Shown here: positions 29,662 to 39,412 of the stretch, in pieces
Position numbering within the stretch: position 1 is the first letter of the stretch
Layout: each line of letters starts with the position of its first letter
Assembly: GCA_007134465.1 (NCBI GenBank)
Contig: SLKS01000140.1
Span: forward strand, 1-40,589
Length of the DNA: 40,589 bases
Reading direction: 5' to 3'
Origin: Kiritimatiellia bacterium
GTDB taxonomy: Bacteria; Verrucomicrobiota; Kiritimatiellia; UBA8416; SLMC01
Program-made: the position numbers and the translations under genes
Notes under the pieces: generated by a model
The model's input: only the letters and a program-made list of their open reading frames with translations
Database searches by the model: none
What the model was told of the DNA's origin: nothing

Positions 29662-31125
29662 CTAAGCGTCGGCGCACACTGCGGATTCAACATCCCTCTC
29701 GGCTTGGGCCTCGCTCGAAGGTGCGGGCTCGGCGGAATTACGAGCCGGAGCCTTTTCTTTTTGCGAAACCTTGCCCAGATAGGAGGGCAGCTCGACGCCT
29801 GCCATAGCGGCGACGTCCTGCAGCGGCGGCAGGCTCTTGATCAGGCCTGAAACGAAATTGGCTGTGCTCGACTTGCCATCGCTGCCGCCACCGTCCCATA
29901 CCGTGATCTTGTCGATTTTCAAATTGCGGATGGCTTCGGTCTGCAGCGCCACGATCTCATTGATTTTCTCGACCATGAGCAGCGTGGCGGCCGAGCGTGC
30001 GTCCTGGTTGCAGCTTCCGACGAGCGAGGCGTATCCCAGCGCCTTGCTGTCGAGCACCTGCCGGATTCCCTTGGCTTCAGCCTCGTACTTCAGCAGAATG
30101 GCGTCCGCTTCGCCCTTGGCCTCGCGGCGCACGCGCTCCGCCTCGGCCTCGGCGGCAATCTCGATCTTGCGTTTCTCGATTTCCTTGCGGACCACTTCTT
30201 CCGCGTTCAAGCGTTCCTGTTCGGCTCGATACTGCGCCTTTTGAATCTCAACCTCGGCCTCGCGACGAGCCACCTCGGCAAGCTTTTTCGCGGCAGCCTC
30301 CTTGACGGCAAGCGTTGCCTCGTAGTCCGCGATGTTGGCCTTGGCCGTGTTTTCGCCGTCGACGGCCTCAGCTTCCTGCTGCTGAACATACACGCGCTGA
30401 TCGGCTTCGGCCTTCTTCTTGCCTTTCTCCGCCTGGGCGATATTGTCGGCCACGCGAATCGTCTTTTCGCGCACGGCGTCCGCTTCGCCAATCGCGCCGA
30501 TCTTGTCCTGCTCGGCGACATCCACTTTGGCACGGTTGATCGCTTCCGATGCCGCCTTTTTGCCGATGCTTTCAATATAGATCGATTCGTCCGTGATGTC
30601 CGTGATGTTCACGTTGATCAGGTACAGGCCGATCTTGTTGAGTTCCGGCTCCACGTTCTTGCGAATCGATTCCAGGAAACTCTCACGGTCCTGGTTGATT
30701 TGCTCGATGGTCAGTGAAGCCACGGTCAGACGCAGCTGACCGAAGATGATCTCCTTGGCCATGTCCTCGATTTCCTTGGCTTGCAGATTCAGCAGGCGCT
30801 CGGCGGCATTGTTCATGATCGCAGGATCCGTGCTGATGCCGACCGTGAAGGTGCTGGGCACGTTGATGCGGATATTCTGGAACGAAAGCGCGTTCTGCAG
30901 GGGAATGCTGATCGTCATCGGCGTGAGCCGCAGGTACGCGAAATCCTGGATCAGCGGCCACACGAACGCACCGCCGCCATGCAGACAGTGCGACGATCGG
31001 TTTCCGGCCACCTTGCCGTAGATCACCAGAATCTGGTCGGAAGGGCAGCGCCGGTAGCGCAGGGACACGAATAGGATTGTAGACACGATCAATACCGTAA
31101 ACGCAATGATCACGACGGGCCACAT
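29662..31125 (-). CDS. Flotillin-like SPFH protein
   Basis: N-terminal TM, CPSDQILVIYGKV, SPFH core, AEAEAERVRREAKGEADAIL helices. Confidence 0.92.
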   Translation of the reverse strand: MWPVVIIAFTVLIVSTILFVSLRYRRCPSDQILVIYGKVAGNRSSHCLHGGGAFVWPLIQDFAYLRLTPMTISIPLQNALSFQNIRINVPSTFTVGISTDPAIMNNAAERLLNLQAKEIEDMAKEIIFGQLRLTVASLTIEQINQDRESFLESIRKNVEPELNKIGLYLINVNITDITDESIYIESIGKKAASEAINRAKVDVAEQDKIGAIGEADAVREKTIRVADNIAQAEKGKKKAEADQRVYVQQQEAEAVDGENTAKANIADYEATLAVKEAAAKKLAEVARREAEVEIQKAQYRAEQERLNAEEVVRKEIEKRKIEIAAEAEAERVRREAKGEADAILLKYEAEAKGIRQVLDSKALGYASLVGSCNQDARSAATLLMVEKINEIVALQTEAIRNLKIDKITVWDGGGSDGKSSTANFVSGLIKSLPPLQDVAAMAGVELPSYLGKVSQKEKAPARNSAEPAPSSEAQAERDVESAVCADA

Positions 31126-31922: not shown

Positions 31923-32640
31923 AGGATCGAAATGCGGTTTTGGCCAGCGCAGACGTTTTTAGATAAGCGCGAAGCCCTTCAGCGCGTCCCTGGGCAGCCG
32001 CTTCTTGTGGCCGAGACTGATCAGGCGTTCGGCCACGGCGTCGGGATCGAGCCCGATGTCCTCGGCCCTGAGCTTGCGGGCCGCACGCCAGCGCCGCACG
32101 CCGGCCGAGGTCAACACGCCCTCGCGGGTCAGCAGATCGAGCATGGAGTTGTTGTCGTTCATAACAGGGTCCTTTCTTTTGGGTTTGATTACTGCACCGG
32201 TTTCCGGCAGGTTGGGTTTCGGTTTCCTGCACGGAGGAATCGCGAATGAAGGCTTCATTGATTGCGCTGGCGGCGTTGGTCTCGGCCTGCGCCGGGTTCG
32301 GTGTCCGAGCCTCTGCCGATGACGCCGGCTCTTCGGAGTTCCCCGAGCGGAGCCGGTCGGCGGGCGACTTCATTGCCGTTGACGTGTCGGCGGGGCCTGC
32401 CGCCACCAACTATCCTGTCCGCTATTTCGCCACGGCCGAAGATGTGCCCGGCGGCGTTACCAATGATCTGTACAAGACTGTGCACATACTGCTGCGCCGC
32501 ATCCCGGCGGGGTCGTTCGTCATGGGCTCGCCCGAGGGCGAGCCGGGGCGCTTCGCCAGTCGCGAAGCCCAGCGACAGGTGACGCTGGCGAAAGACTATT
32601 ACATGGGCGTGTTCCCCGTGACTCAGAAACAGTGGGAACG
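31923..32640 (+). repeat. Duplicated cassette copy A (small ORF, divergent promoter, 5' part of SUMF1 gene)
   Basis: Near-identical to 36573 onward, starting at AGGATCGAAATGCGGTTT; identity decays gradually inside the SUMF1 gene, so the right edge is approximate. Confidence 0.9.
31959..32162 (-). CDS. Conserved small protein (67 aa), unknown function, copy A
   Basis: MNDNNSMLDLLTREGVLTSAGVRRWRAARKLRAEDIGLDPDAVAERLISLGHKKRLPRDALKGFALI*; AAAGGA upstream of ATG; duplicated at 36609-36812. Confidence 0.7.
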   Translation of the reverse strand: MNDNNSMLDLLTREGVLTSAGVRRWRAARKLRAEDIGLDPDAVAERLISLGHKKRLPRDALKGFALI

Positions 32641-34420
32641 GGTGATGGGAAACTGGCCGAGCTGGTTCGGCAATCCGGCCTATCGCGACAGTCGGCCGGT
32701 GGAAAGAGTCAGTTACTTTGACATTCGGGAGAACCCCGACAACAGCGCCATCAGCCCGAACTGGCCGCAGTCGAGCCTCGTGCATGCGGACTCGTTCATG
32801 GGCAAGCTGCGAGCGAAGACGGGGCTCTCGACCTTGGACTTGCCGACGGAAGCGCAGTGGGAATACGCCTGCCGGGCGGGGACCGGCACGGCGTTGAACA
32901 GCGGCAAGAACCTGACAAACGTTGAAGCCTGCCCGAACATGTCGGAAGTCGGGCGCTATCGTCATAACCATCCGGGCGAGTATTCCGACTGTTCAAGCGC
33001 GAGCACGGCTGGCGGCACGGCCAAGGCGGGTTCGCATGCGCCCAATGCCTGGGGCTTGTACGACATGCACGGGAACGTGTGGGAGTGGTGTCTGGACTGG
33101 TACACGGCGGCGGCGCCGGAAACGACGGATCCTGCAGGTGCAGCTTCGGGGTCGAGCCGCATATTGCGGGGCGGTTGCTGGAACTACGCCGCGGTGTTTT
33201 GCCGCTCCGCATGCCGGGACGGCAACGTCCCGTCGAACCGCAACGACAACCGCATCGGTTTCCGCCTCGCCATGCCCCTGCCCGCCGAGCGGCACATGTT
33301 GACGGTATCCAACGGTACGGGCGGCGGCTCGCATGCCGCAGGTTCGGCCGTGAACGTGGTGGCGGAAGCCGCGCCCTCAGGCCATATTTTCGCCACGTGG
33401 CGGGTTGCCCCTGCCGACGCGGATATGGGCGAAAATTTCGACCCGATGGCCGCGTCCGCCACGCTAACCATGCCGGACCATGCCGCAAGCTTGACGGCAA
33501 CATACGTCCAGGACGCAGGCGATTACATGGTCATTGATCTCTCCGGCGGGCCGACAGCAACGAAGTATCCGGTGAGCTACACGAACGCGGCCCCGGCCGG
33601 CGGCTGGACCGACGAGTACAAGACCACCAAGCTGGTCATGCGCCGCATCCCGGCAGGCACGTTCATGATGGGCTCGCCCGAGAGCGAGCTGGGACGCTCC
33701 CGCAGCGAAGCCCGGCGGCAGGTGACGCTGACGAAGGATTTCTACATCGGTGTCTTTCCCGTGACGCAGAAACAATGGGAGCGCGTGACGGGAAACTGGC
33801 CGAGCCGCTATCGCAACCAAGCCCACCGAGAAGCCAAACCGGTCGAGTCAGTCACGTACTACGAAATTCGGGAAAACCCGCTGCCGGTCCTCGACGATTA
33901 CAGCAAAGGCAGCCCCATCGCGACGAACTGGCCGCAGTCGAGCCTCGTGCATGCGGACTCGTTCATGGGCAAGCTGCGGGCGAAGACGGGGCTCTCGGCC
34001 TTGGACTTGCCGACGGAAGCGCAGTGGGAATACGCCTGCCGCGCGGGAACGACAACGGCGCTCAACAGATGGAAAAACCTCACCCATCACGAAGAATGCA
34101 CGAATTTGTCCGAAGTCGCCAAGTACAGTCGCAATCGTATCGGGGGCTACGGTCCGGCCAAGGTAGGCTCTTTTCTTCCCAACGTTTGGGGACTCTACGA
34201 CATGCACGGAAATATCCTGGAGTGGTGCCTGGACTGGTATACGGAGGCGCCGCCCGGAACGACGGATCCTGTGGGACCGGCTTCGGGGGCGTGGCGCACG
34301 ATGCGGGGCGGGTCATGGGACCGCATCGCCAGATTCTGCCGTTCGGCCAGTCGGTGCGCCAGCTGCCCCTTCGATCCCCGCAACATCTTTGGCCTGCGCC
34401 TCGCCATGACCGTGCCATGA
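32246..34420 (+). CDS. Secreted protein with two SUMF1/FGE-sulfatase-fold domains separated by an InlB-B-like repeat
   Basis: Signal peptide MKASLIALAALVSACAGFGVRA; twice RRIPAG(S/T)F(V/M)MGSPE ... LPTEAQWEYACRAGT ... WGLYDMHGN(V/I)(W/L)EWCLDWY ... RGG(C/S)W; linker HMLTVSNGTGGGSHAAGSAVNVVAEAAPSGHIFATW. Confidence 0.93.
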   Translation: MKASLIALAALVSACAGFGVRASADDAGSSEFPERSRSAGDFIAVDVSAGPAATNYPVRYFATAEDVPGGVTNDLYKTVHILLRRIPAGSFVMGSPEGEPGRFASREAQRQVTLAKDYYMGVFPVTQKQWERVMGNWPSWFGNPAYRDSRPVERVSYFDIRENPDNSAISPNWPQSSLVHADSFMGKLRAKTGLSTLDLPTEAQWEYACRAGTGTALNSGKNLTNVEACPNMSEVGRYRHNHPGEYSDCSSASTAGGTAKAGSHAPNAWGLYDMHGNVWEWCLDWYTAAAPETTDPAGAASGSSRILRGGCWNYAAVFCRSACRDGNVPSNRNDNRIGFRLAMPLPAERHMLTVSNGTGGGSHAAGSAVNVVAEAAPSGHIFATWRVAPADADMGENFDPMAASATLTMPDHAASLTATYVQDAGDYMVIDLSGGPTATKYPVSYTNAAPAGGWTDEYKTTKLVMRRIPAGTFMMGSPESELGRSRSEARRQVTLTKDFYIGVFPVTQKQWERVTGNWPSRYRNQAHREAKPVESVTYYEIRENPLPVLDDYSKGSPIATNWPQSSLVHADSFMGKLRAKTGLSALDLPTEAQWEYACRAGTTTALNRWKNLTHHEECTNLSEVAKYSRNRIGGYGPAKVGSFLPNVWGLYDMHGNILEWCLDWYTEAPPGTTDPVGPASGAWRTMRGGSWDRIARFCRSASRCASCPFDPRNIFGLRLAMTVP

Positions 34421-35003: not shown

Positions 35004-36248
35004 TCATTTCAGGCCCTGAAGGAATAAGGCCGCTCGCTCTTTAATGATGCCAGCCACGCGTTCCACCATGCCGGGGTCGTTGGCAGCGTTCAGAACGGCC
35101 TCGTCCCGCAGTCCATCGATGCACTTGCCGCACAGGTCCACGATCCGTTCACGCAGCATAGGCCAGCCCACGCGGCATTCCCCGGCCATCTTCTGCCAGT
35201 GCGCGGGTGTGATCGTCTCAATGGATTCGCTCTTTCCGATCTTCATGGCCGGAGTCTTGGACAGTTCGGGCCAAGCCAGCGTGCAGACCAGATCGTAGAA
35301 CGGCGCAAGCCTGCGGTCGGTCTTGCCGCAGAGGATCGAGTAGTTCTTGCCATGCGCGTCGGCATTCCCGATCAGCGCATTGAAAATCAACCCGTCCAGG
35401 AAGTCCCGGATGTCCAGCGCCGACAAGGTGGACCACTCCCGAAGCAGACCGATACAGTCGCGGAGCAGCGGTCCGCCTTCCTGTTGATACTTCCGCTCCG
35501 GGGGGAACCCCAGCGCTTGGCAGAAGTCCTCCTGGTGAACACGCGTGACCGAGCCGTTGGCGTCTATGGATCGGTCGTAGCGCTGAACGACAATGCACGG
35601 CTTGTTGCCGACCGGGCGGTTGGACACCCGAGGCACGTTCAGGCCGACCGATCTGGCCAGCGTCATGCAGAGAACCTCGTTGGCCACCAGTCCCGTGAAT
35701 CGCTCGGGCTCCGGTTTGATGATATGCGTGCTCGGCGTGTTGCCGAGAGGCAGCGAGAGGGTCGCATCCCGAATCAGGACCGGCAACTTCGACTGCGATC
35801 CAGCCAACGAAAGCCGCAACCCTTCGCGTCCCGCCATCAGAGGACGGCGGGGAAGTTCTGCGACAATATCCTCCAACTCGCTTTCGCTCAGTTCACGAGT
35901 ACGGGTCTCGCCTACGGTCGGAGCAGGCGCGTGCTCCGGTAGCAGGCTGACCGCTCCCGCGCATTCGCCGCCGATCCGTTCCAGCATGGCGAAGTCGTTG
36001 CGCTCGCTGATTCCGAGAATGGCGGCGATCTGTTGCCGGGGCCCCTCATCGGGGAGGATGCCGGCGAAGAAAGGGCGAGCATGCTTGCCTCGGAACAGTT
36101 CGCTCTGGAGCGGCAGCGACCGGGAAAGCGGGATGGCATCCGACCTGCCTTCCCATTCCGAATCATAGCGGAACTCGAGCAGCCCGCTGTCATCCTCGTC
36201 CAGAGCGCCGACCCGCTCGCCATTCAGGTAGACGATCAATCGCTTCAT
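35004..36248 (-). CDS. hipA: HipA-family Ser/Thr kinase toxin
   Basis: VYLNGERVGAL, SLAGSQSKLPV, THIIKPE, NALIGNADAHGKNYSIL, LAPFYDLVCT. Confidence 0.95.
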   Translation of the reverse strand: MKRLIVYLNGERVGALDEDDSGLLEFRYDSEWEGRSDAIPLSRSLPLQSELFRGKHARPFFAGILPDEGPRQQIAAILGISERNDFAMLERIGGECAGAVSLLPEHAPAPTVGETRTRELSESELEDIVAELPRRPLMAGREGLRLSLAGSQSKLPVLIRDATLSLPLGNTPSTHIIKPEPERFTGLVANEVLCMTLARSVGLNVPRVSNRPVGNKPCIVVQRYDRSIDANGSVTRVHQEDFCQALGFPPERKYQQEGGPLLRDCIGLLREWSTLSALDIRDFLDGLIFNALIGNADAHGKNYSILCGKTDRRLAPFYDLVCTLAWPELSKTPAMKIGKSESIETITPAHWQKMAGECRVGWPMLRERIVDLCGKCIDGLRDEAVLNAANDPGMVERVAGIIKERAALFLQGLK

Positions 36249-36572: not shown

Positions 36573-37290
36573 AGGATCGAAATGCGGTTTGGGCCAGCGC
36601 AGACGTTTTTAGATAAGCGCGAAGCCCTTCAGCGCGTCCCTGGGCATCCGCTTCTTGTGGCCGAGACTGATCAGGCGTTCGGCCACGGCGTCGGGATCGA
36701 GCCCGATGTCCTCGGCCCTGAGCTTGCGGGCCGCGCGCCAGCGCCGCACGCCGGCCGAGGCCAGCACGCCCTCGCGGGTCAGCAGATCGAGCATGGAGTT
36801 GTTGTCGGTCATAACGGAGTCCTTTCTCTTTTGAGTTTGCTTACTGCACCGGTTTCCGGCAGGTTGGGTTTCGGTTTCCTGCACGGAGGGATTTTGAATG
36901 AAGACTTCAGTGATTGCGTTGGCTGCGCTGGTCTCGGCCTGCGCCGGGTTCGGTGTCCGCGCCTCTGCCGATGACGCCGGATCTTCGGAGTCCCCCGAGC
37001 GGAGCCGGTCGGCCGGCGACTACATGGCCATAGACGTGTCGGCGGGTCCTGCCGCCACCAACTATCCCGTTCGGTATTTCGCCACAGGAGAAGACGTTCC
37101 CGGCGGCGTCACCAACGATCTGTACAAGACCACCCACATACTGATGCGCCGCATTCCGGCTGGCACGTTTACCATGGGTTCGCCCGAGGGCGAGTTGGGG
37201 CGCAATAGCGACGAAGCCCAGCGCGAGGTGACGCTGACGAAGGATTTCTACATCGGGGTGTTCCCGGTCACACAGCGGCAGTGGGAACGC
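36573..37290 (+). repeat. Duplicated cassette copy B
   Basis: AGGATCGAAATGCGGTTTGGGCCAGCGCAGACGTTTTTAGATAAGCGCGAAG... matches 31923 onward, including non-coding sequence; right edge approximate. Confidence 0.9.
36609..36812 (-). CDS. Conserved small protein (67 aa), unknown function, copy B
   Basis: MTDNNSMLDLLTREGVLASAGVRRWRAARKLRAEDIGLDPDAVAERLISLGHKKRMPRDALKGFALI*; 3 aa differences from copy A. Confidence 0.7.
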   Translation of the reverse strand: MTDNNSMLDLLTREGVLASAGVRRWRAARKLRAEDIGLDPDAVAERLISLGHKKRMPRDALKGFALI

Positions 37291-37941
37291 GTGGCGGGCA
37301 ACTGGCCGAGCTGGTTCAGGAACACGTCGTACCGCGACAGCCGTCCCGTGGAGCAGGTCAGCTACTTGAAAATCCGAGAGTGCCCGAACAACAACCCGAT
37401 CAGCCCGAACTGGCCAAAGTCGAGCCAGGTGCACGCGGACTCGTTCATGGGCAGGCTGCGGGCCAGGACAGGGCTTTCGACGCTGGACCTGCCGACGGAG
37501 GCGCAGTGGGAATACGCCTGCCGTGCGGGAACGACGACGGCACTGAACTCGGGCAAGAATCTGACAAATACGGAATCTTGTCCGAACATGGATGAGGCGG
37601 GACGGTATAGGCACAACCATCCCGGCGGGTATGATCCAATGTTCCCAACGAGCACGAACGCGGACGGGGGCACGGCGAAAGTGGGCTCGTATCTTCCCAA
37701 TGCCTGGGGACTGTACGACACGCACGGGAACGTGTTGGAGTGGTGCCTGGACCGGCATCTGGCCGAGGCGCCGTGGTCGGCGGATCCCGAGGATGCGGTT
37801 TTGGGGTCGTTCCGCACAACTCGGGGCGGGAGCTGGGGCTGCAACGCCAGGCACTGCCGCTCCGCGTACCGGCTCAGCGGCACCCCGGACTTTCGGCTCA
37901 GCAACTACGTCGGCTTTCGCATCGCCATGACCGTACCGTAA
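36898..37941 (+). CDS. Secreted single-domain SUMF1/FGE-sulfatase-fold protein
   Basis: Signal peptide MKTSVIALAALVSACAGFGVRA; RRIPAGTFTMGSPEGE, LPTEAQWEYACRAGTTTAL, WGLYDTHGNVLEWCLD, TRGGSWGCNARHCRSAYR. Confidence 0.93.
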   Translation: MKTSVIALAALVSACAGFGVRASADDAGSSESPERSRSAGDYMAIDVSAGPAATNYPVRYFATGEDVPGGVTNDLYKTTHILMRRIPAGTFTMGSPEGELGRNSDEAQREVTLTKDFYIGVFPVTQRQWERVAGNWPSWFRNTSYRDSRPVEQVSYLKIRECPNNNPISPNWPKSSQVHADSFMGRLRARTGLSTLDLPTEAQWEYACRAGTTTALNSGKNLTNTESCPNMDEAGRYRHNHPGGYDPMFPTSTNADGGTAKVGSYLPNAWGLYDTHGNVLEWCLDRHLAEAPWSADPEDAVLGSFRTTRGGSWGCNARHCRSAYRLSGTPDFRLSNYVGFRIAMTVP

Positions 37942-38344: not shown

Positions 38345-39412
38345 GTGATGAGAGATTTTCTAAGGGGGTTGACCGATCCGATGAATACCGAGGGATTCAC
38401 CCTCGGCGATCGTTCGGCCCTTGGCGCTGAAAAACGAAAAACCGGAGGAGGTCCGAGAATGTCACGCGACACGCTGAACGAATTGCGGGGTGAACACGCT
38501 GCACGGCAACTGAAGCGGATGAAGCTTCGGTTGCCTATCATAGCGGCTACGTTCGGAATTGCGTCTGTCTGTTTGCTTCCTGGCGTTATCCTTCTCCTTG
38601 GACAAGGCAATGCGATTGCGCTCATTGTTTCCGCTGTTGTGGCTGTTGCCGCTTCAGTCCTCTTGAACATGTCGGCGCAACTCCTCGCGGAATGGGATCG
38701 GGCGGTCGTCTTGAGAATGGGCCGCTTCGAACGGGTGGCCGGCCCAGGATTCTTTATGATCATGCCGGTCGTGCAGCATGTCTCGCGCGTGCTCGATACA
38801 AGAGTTCGTACGACATCGTTCTACGTTGAATCCATGCTCACGAAGGACACCGTGCCGATTTCGATCGAAGCCATTGCCTTCTGGCGTGTTCTCGATGCGC
38901 GGAAAACCGTATTGGAGGTCGAGGACTATTACCAGGCGATCACAATGGCCGTCCAAACGGCGCATCGCGACATTATGGGCGAGCATAATCTGACGGACAT
39001 CCTGGCGAAGCGCGAGGAAATTGTCCTTGAACTGAAGCAAGTACTGGAGGCGAAGGCGAACACATGGGGGATCGAGGTGGGGTCGATCGAGATTCGAGAC
39101 ATTACAATCCCGCAAAACCTCCAGCAGGCTCTATCCAAACAGGCACAGGCAGAACGAGAGCGGTTGGCGAGAGATATCTTGGGCGAAGCCGAAATGGATA
39201 TCGCCGACAAGTTCGCAAAAGCATCGGAAGCCTATCGAGACAACCCTATTGGCCTGCAACTCCGTGCAATGAATATTGTATACGAGGGACTCCGGTCCGG
39301 CACCTCCATGATGTTGGTACCGTCATCGGTGCTTGACACGATGAATCTGGGCTCGGTGGCCGCACTGGGCGAGTCCCTGCGTCCAAAACCGGTTGAGGCA
39401 AAACCGAAATGA
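38345..39412 (+). CDS. Stomatin/slipin-like SPFH protein (alternative start 38459)
   Basis: TM segment, EWDRAVVLRMGRFERVAGPGFFMIMPVVQ, DTRVRTTSFYVESMLTKDTVPISIEAIAFWRV, IRDITIPQNLQQALSKQAQAERER. Confidence 0.93.
   Translation: MMRDFLRGLTDPMNTEGFTLGDRSALGAEKRKTGGGPRMSRDTLNELRGEHAARQLKRMKLRLPIIAATFGIASVCLLPGVILLLGQGNAIALIVSAVVAVAASVLLNMSAQLLAEWDRAVVLRMGRFERVAGPGFFMIMPVVQHVSRVLDTRVRTTSFYVESMLTKDTVPISIEAIAFWRVLDARKTVLEVEDYYQAITMAVQTAHRDIMGEHNLTDILAKREEIVLELKQVLEAKANTWGIEVGSIEIRDITIPQNLQQALSKQAQAERERLARDILGEAEMDIADKFAKASEAYRDNPIGLQLRAMNIVYEGLRSGTSMMLVPSSVLDTMNLGSVAALGESLRPKPVEAKPK

What the first reader, a model, noticed from the sequence alone, without database searches (positions are those of the whole stretch)
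37825..37941. DGR-like variable region at the C-terminus of the single-domain SUMF1 protein
Seen: from GGC GGG AGC TGG the codons run GGC TGC AAC GCC AGG CAC TGC CGC TCC GCG TAC CGG CTC AGC GGC ACC CCG GAC TTT CGG CTC AGC AAC TAC GTC GGC TTT CGC. A fixed frame (GGSW---AR-CRSA-R----P--R----VGFR) is interrupted by clusters that are nearly all NNC. Established: DGR target proteins use the C-type-lectin/FGE-sulfatase fold, and adenine-specific mutagenesis of AAC codons in the template repeat gives NNC codons in the variable region. Inference: this is a DGR variable region, or a fossil of one. Caveat: the genome is GC-rich, so C in third position is common anyway.
Basis: partly seen in the sequence, partly recalled or inferred. 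Interest (0 to 1): 0.75.

Follow-up and report, generated by a model that had tools for sequence, protein, structure and literature searches.

The report
Orphan DGR-type variable region, FGE protein
The end of this secreted lectin-fold protein carries the imprint of a diversity-generating retroelement, a genetic device that randomises chosen codons of a binding protein, but the device itself (reverse transcriptase and template) is not in the assembled genome, so this is an orphan target of a known kind of system.

Summary
ORF 36898-37941(+) is a single FGE-sulfatase-domain (PF03781) protein whose C-terminus has the fixed frame and NNC clusters described. The pattern exceeds what GC-richness gives. 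Two paralogous FGE domains lie nearby in one ORF (32246-34420). At the columns that are AAC in template repeats of related DGRs, gene A has 11/11 NNC codons (5.4 expected given its amino acids). First and second bases there are randomised between paralogs A and B (19/24 differ, against 106/666 elsewhere), while third bases hardly differ (1/12). Genomes of the same order carry complete DGRs with homologous targets (up to 58% identical). Their TRs encode GGSWNNNARNCRSANRNNN-P-NRNNNIGFR, exactly this frame, and their TR/VR pairs differ only at template adenines. So the segment was most likely written by a DGR, after the paralogs separated. The genome (85% complete, 409 contigs) has no RT and no TR by three kinds of search that find both in relatives. 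Genes A and B cannot have been copied recently from one TR, and none of A, B, C has the hairpin seen downstream of many verified DGR targets. It is an orphan: a remote target whose cassette is missing from the MAG, or a relic. Current activity is undetermined.

The parts
36898..37941 (+). Gene A: 347-aa protein with apparent N-terminal signal peptide and one FGE-sulfatase domain; putative DGR variable protein
   Evidence: Pfam PF03781 E=1.5e-36; PDB matches include DGR variable protein TvpA 2y3c (E=5.6e-16) and 5nxl (E=2.4e-16), besides FGE; signal peptide is by eye
37825..37920 (+). Variable region of gene A (GGSW...GFR, 32 codons)
   Evidence: Frame identical to translated TRs of same-order DGRs; 11/11 NNC at TR-AAC columns vs 5.4 expected
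37837..37845 (+). Variable codon cluster 1 (GGC TGC AAC), at the TR NNN after GGSW
   Evidence: Aligned with AAC AAC AAC of TRs in L052, L127, L128, L130, L138, L139
37873..37884 (+). Variable codon cluster 2 (CTC AGC GGC ACC)
   Evidence: Columns 334-337 of the A/B/C codon alignment, NNC in all three paralogs
37897..37908 (+). Variable codon cluster 3 (CTC AGC AAC TAC)
   Evidence: Columns 342-345, NNC in all three paralogs
32246..34420 (+). Genes B+C: one 724-aa ORF with two FGE-sulfatase domains (75% and 63% identical to gene A) separated by an InlB-like repeat (PF18998)
33170..33265 (+). Variable region B, internal in the two-domain protein
   Evidence: 10/11 NNC vs 6.7 expected
34307..34399 (+). 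Variable region C, C-terminal in the two-domain protein
   Evidence: 10/11 NNC vs 6.4 expected

Best explanation
The segment is a DGR-written variable region in an FGE-subtype C-type-lectin protein, probably a secreted binding protein and not an enzyme. An error-prone DGR reverse transcriptase copied an AAC-rich template repeat, misincorporated opposite its adenines, and the cDNA replaced the 3' end of the gene. This randomised about 12 codons, expected to be solvent-exposed, as NNC and left the fold-holding frame intact (mechanism established for DGRs; here inferred from its footprint). It happened after genes A and B duplicated. RT and TR are not in the assembled genome, so the gene is an orphan target: either remote from a cassette lost from the incomplete assembly, or a relic whose cassette was lost. 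I cannot decide between these, and lean slightly to a relic or intermittently served target for gene A.
For: NNC excess conditional on amino acid. A vs B first and second bases at TR-AAC columns 19/24 different, against 106/666 elsewhere (Fisher P=5e-11) and 10/42 at frame codons of the VR; third bases 1/12 different, against 71/230. Complete DGRs in the same order with 0 non-A mismatches over 60-nt windows and many A-substitutions. The closest, G022:C28 (L127), has a target 58% identical to gene A. L052 has a target about 50% identical plus an HRDC accessory gene and an IGNLTSQ/YMDD RT. TR translations in the order give this VR's frame. Homologs with no DGR signature show no excess (L153, L149, L078, L121). 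Sequence match to solved DGR variable proteins.
Against: No RVT_1, no match to a DGR RT at E<=10, no match to an 8-RT profile that finds three RTs in L052's genome, and no TR by synthetic-TR BLAST or by a TR pattern that finds 7 TRs in 5 order genomes. The one congener and the one other family genome also lack the RT. A and B differ at frame third bases, so they are not recent copies of one TR. No GRA-loop hairpin follows VR A, B or C, while about half of the verified targets have a significant one. The third-base constancy test is individually weak (P=0.08 for A-B, 0.008 for A-C, 0.13 for B-C).
Confidence: 0.8

Rival explanations
1. Still-active remote target: the DGR cassette sits in the ~15% of the genome missing from the assembly, or on an unbinned mobile element, and diversifies gene A in trans. 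(A sub-version of the best explanation.)
For: Genome 85% complete in 409 contigs. In relatives, RT cassettes often sit on short contigs or contig ends (L052 3.9 kb; G025:C61 RT at base 509; G022:C28 target cut by the contig end), so cassettes are easily lost. NNC third bases are little eroded. Remote and trans-acted targets are documented (PMC10907252, PMC4891356, PMC7517822).
Against: No downstream hairpin; A and B cannot share one TR; the 62% homolog in a 91%-complete genome (G015) is also without a DGR RT, its RT being PQGGPLSP type.
Confidence: 0.35
2. Relic: the DGR was lost and the VRs now evolve by ordinary mutation and selection. (The other sub-version of the best explanation.)
For: No RT/TR in own genome and no RT in congener or family genome; no hairpin; frame codons diverged at the ordinary rate. 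Target genes thought to be remnants in strains lacking a complete DGR are described in Treponema denticola (PMC4891356).
Against: Third bases of the 12 columns have barely drifted, and columns are randomised relative to the A-B split, so loss would have to be fairly recent.
Confidence: 0.45
3. Ordinary FGE-like protein under diversifying selection in a GC-rich genome; no retroelement was ever involved.
For: The amino-acid frame GGSW...CRSA.R...GFR also occurs in homologs with no NNC excess; GC3 is high.
Against: The amino-acid-conditioned NNC test controls for composition; first and second bases are saturated while third bases stay C; the positions coincide with TR AAC codons of homologous DGRs.
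Confidence: 0.12
4. Shuffling of pre-made VRs among paralogs by recombination.
For: Three paralogous VRs lie within 5 kb.
Against: Frame codons inside the VRs differ as much as the rest of the genes and no shared tracts are seen.
Confidence: 0.05

Closest known systems
Diversity-generating retroelements of the same bacterial order (e.g. G022:C28/L127) and of a Pontiellaceae MAG (L052)
   Same: Homologous FGE-sulfatase target (58% and about 50% identical), same VR frame, variable codons at the same places
   Different: There the RT and an AAC-rich TR lie next to the target with adenine-only differences; here neither is present in the assembly
Treponema denticola TvpA/DGR with remote and leftover targets (PMC4891356; structure 2y3c)
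   Same: FGE-subtype variable protein, several targets away from the RT, target genes in strains without a complete DGR
   Different: There the targets can be matched to a TR in the same species; here no TR is known
Thermus aquaticus TaqVP (PMC6328139) and Thiohalocapsa PB-PSB1 DGRs (PMC10907252)
   Same: FGE-type CLec fold with C-terminal VR; PB-PSB1 has multi-VR targets and remote or incomplete loci
   Different: Observed diversification or an identified RT in those systems; here only a sequence footprint

Membership tests
Diversity-generating retroelement (DGR), complete system | DGR-clade reverse transcriptase in the genome | tested here: not met
   RVT_1 none; L052 RT none at E<=10; 8-RT profile none while ringing 3x in L052's genome. 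Assembly 85% complete, so absence is not proof.
Diversity-generating retroelement (DGR), complete system | Template repeat near-identical to the VR except at adenines | tested here: not met
   Adenine-tolerant scan of the window: best 33 non-A mismatches; synthetic TR BLAST finds only VRs A and B above noise; TR pattern finds 7 TRs in 5 order genomes, none here, none with the reversed control.
DGR variable protein (target gene) | CLec/FGE fold with VR at or near the C-terminus | tested here: met
   PF03781; PDB relatives TvpA 2y3c and 5nxl by sequence; VR within the last 40 codons. VR B is internal. No structure model was obtained.
DGR variable protein (target gene) | Variation confined to positions derived from template adenines (first two bases of AAC codons) | tested here: inconclusive
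   Paralog comparison gives the expected footprint: 19/24 first/second bases differ at those columns vs 106/666 elsewhere, third bases 1/12. But frame codons also differ between paralogs, and without the TR the template adenines are inferred from relatives.
DGR variable protein (target gene) | IMH-like element: hairpin downstream of the VR | tested here: not met
   No significant short-loop hairpin within 130 nt of VR A, B or C (shuffle p 0.33, 0.71, 1); only about half of the verified VRs have one, so this is a weak criterion.
DGR variable protein (target gene) | Ongoing A-site polymorphism in a population | not testable with these tools
   No reads held.
Catalytic formylglycine-generating enzyme | Two active-site cysteines (C-x4-C after GGSY) | tested here: inconclusive
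   Gene A shows C-x4-C (GCNARHC) aligned with FGE, but the first Cys is a variable codon (TGC) absent from B and C; probably coincidence.

The most novel reading that the evidence does not exclude
FGE variable proteins of these PVC-type bacteria may form a large class of hypervariable proteins whose genomes usually hold no DGR RT. Of about fourteen genomes with a significant NNC signature and no adjacent cassette, only two had a recognisable DGR RT. They might be diversified in trans by RTs on mobile elements, or by an unrecognised enzyme.
Probability: 0.1. Interest if true: 0.75.

Novelty: new member of a known kind. Interest (0 to 1): 0.4.

Why it matters
It shows that DGR targets can be recognised without their RT or TR, from the codon footprint plus paralog comparison, which matters because surveys that need the RT next to the VR miss remote targets (stated in PMC8144416). 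It also points to a set of FGE variable proteins in rumen and anaerobic PVC-type bacteria whose diversifying machinery is missing from the assemblies.

Tried and rejected
(1) Avd lead: PF05635 has 11 hits in the genome, and contig C283 has two beside an FGE domain. No RT-like ORF was seen on C283, its FGE gene is cut by the contig end, and PF05635 covers ordinary four-helix proteins too, so this was dropped. (2) Synthetic-TR BLAST side hits (C66 and others) are 14-25 nt matches; C66 lies in an unrelated gene. (3) The RT of G015, the genome with the 62% homolog, is of the PQGGPLSP type, not DGR. (4) Other FGE genes of the genome (C304, C260, C294) lack the footprint by eye or by test; C264 is borderline. 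(5) Viral contigs: 78 loci, best 43% identity, three with a DGR-like RT motif, none close to the window's genes. (6) A structure prediction was submitted but did not finish. (7) Rfam found only a tRNA.

Full report
OBSERVATION. The codons quoted are present in frame at 37825-37941 at the end of ORF 36898-37941(+). The protein has one FGE-sulfatase domain (PF03781, E=1.5e-36) and what looks like a signal peptide. NNC codons make up 0.68 of the segment and 0.39 of the ORF.

The gene has close relatives in the window. ORF 32246-34420(+) contains two more FGE domains, B and C, 75% and 63% identical to gene A, with an InlB-like repeat between them. Their corresponding segments are 33170-33265 and 34307-34399.

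IS IT MORE THAN GC-RICHNESS? In the codon alignment of A, B and C, VR columns where all three residues differ are NNC in 34 of 36 codons. Given the amino acids and local codon usage 21.5 are expected (0 of 200,000 simulations reach the observed value). Columns of the same variability in the rest of the gene have 17 of 51, 19.4 expected. With columns fixed from template repeats of other genomes, gene A has 11/11 NNC (5.4 expected), the most extreme of 62 homologous segments and on a par with verified DGR targets L130, L139, L052 and L128. Homologs such as L153, L149, L078 and L121 show none. P-values in that table are not corrected for 62 tests.

Base by base, A and B differ at 19 of 24 first and second bases of the TR-AAC columns. 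They differ at 106 of 666 elsewhere (P=5e-11) and at 10 of 42 in the frame codons of the VR. Third bases of those columns differ once in 12, against 71/230 in same-residue codons outside the VR. First and second bases are thus effectively randomised since the duplication, while third bases stay C. This is the footprint of adenine-specific mutagenesis of AAC codons. The third-base part alone is weak (P=0.08, 0.008, 0.13 for the three pairs).

RELATIVES WITH THE MACHINERY. Locus L052 (a Pontiellaceae MAG) holds a homologous target, an HRDC-domain accessory ORF, an RT with IGNLTSQ/YMDD, and a TR whose differences from the VR fall at TR adenines. In the order of the window's genome, 12 of 31 genomes match that RT; the weaker matches include RTs of other kinds. 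Loci L127-L131, L139, L140 and L145 have TR/VR pairs with no non-adenine mismatch in 60-nt windows. Their TRs translate as GGSWNNNARNCRSANRNNN-P-NRNNNIGFR and close variants, the frame of the window segment with N at its variable positions. The nearest complete system is G022:C28 (L127), with a target 58% identical to gene A.

THE MACHINERY IS NOT HERE. The own genome (3.99 Mb, 409 contigs, 85% complete) has no RVT_1 match, no match to the L052 RT at E<=10, and none to a profile of eight DGR RTs that finds three in L052's genome. A synthetic TR finds only VRs A and B above noise. A TR pattern that recovers seven TRs in five genomes of the order, and nothing with the reversed control, finds none here. 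The one congener and the one other genome of the family also have no such RT.

Frame codons of A and B differ at third bases as elsewhere, so both were not written recently from one TR. About half of the verified targets have a strong short-loop hairpin (often a GGA or GAA loop) a few dozen bases downstream of the VR; A, B and C have none.

INTERPRETATION. Shown: the codon footprint, its place, homologous complete DGRs in the order, and absence of RT and TR from the assembly. Inferred: a DGR wrote these VRs after A and B separated. Not decided: whether the cassette is missing from the assembly (remote, perhaps active target; cassettes in relatives often lie on short contigs or contig ends) or truly lost (relic). 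Both situations are described in other bacteria (PMC10907252, PMC4891356, PMC7517822). The absent hairpin and the independent frames lean towards a relic; the little-eroded third bases lean towards recent writing.

FUNCTION. By homology to TvpA and the Thermus aquaticus protein (PMC6328139) the variable residues are expected to line a solvent-exposed ligand-binding site (established for those proteins, inferred here). Catalytic FGE activity is unlikely: the cysteine of gene A that aligns with one FGE cysteine is encoded by a variable codon and is absent from B and C.

NOVELTY. New member of a known kind. What is moderately interesting is the wider set: many homologs in related bacteria have the same codon footprint, some in tandem repeats with internal VRs, while only about two of fourteen such genomes held a recognisable DGR RT. 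Incompleteness of the assemblies may explain part of this.

Noticed in passing
L047:12839-14130: Two internal VR-like segments in one long ORF, each followed by the same perfect 12-bp hairpin TCAAATTCAAAA-GGA-TTTTGAATTTGA inside coding sequence, like a downstream target hairpin; no DGR RT found in that genome.
   Followed up: partly
L099:142-1830: Three tandem FGE repeats, each with a VR-like segment (NNC 0.52-0.75 against about 0.2 upstream); no DGR RT in that genome.
   Followed up: partly
32246-34420: Two FGE domains with an internal and a C-terminal VR in one protein, joined by an InlB-like repeat (PF18998); internal VRs are unusual.
   Followed up: partly
35004-36248: HipA-like kinase (PF13657 + PF07804) on the minus strand between the two FGE genes, possibly a toxin-antitoxin locus.
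   Followed up: no
29662-31125 and 38345-39412: Two SPFH/Band 7 (flotillin-like) genes flank the FGE gene region on either side, on opposite strands.
   Followed up: no
L199, L200, L246: IMG/VR viral contigs with an FGE homolog and a DGR-like RT (I-G-x-L-T-S-Q / YMDD); L199 and L246 also have TR/VR pairs, L246 with a GAA-loop hairpin.
   Followed up: partly
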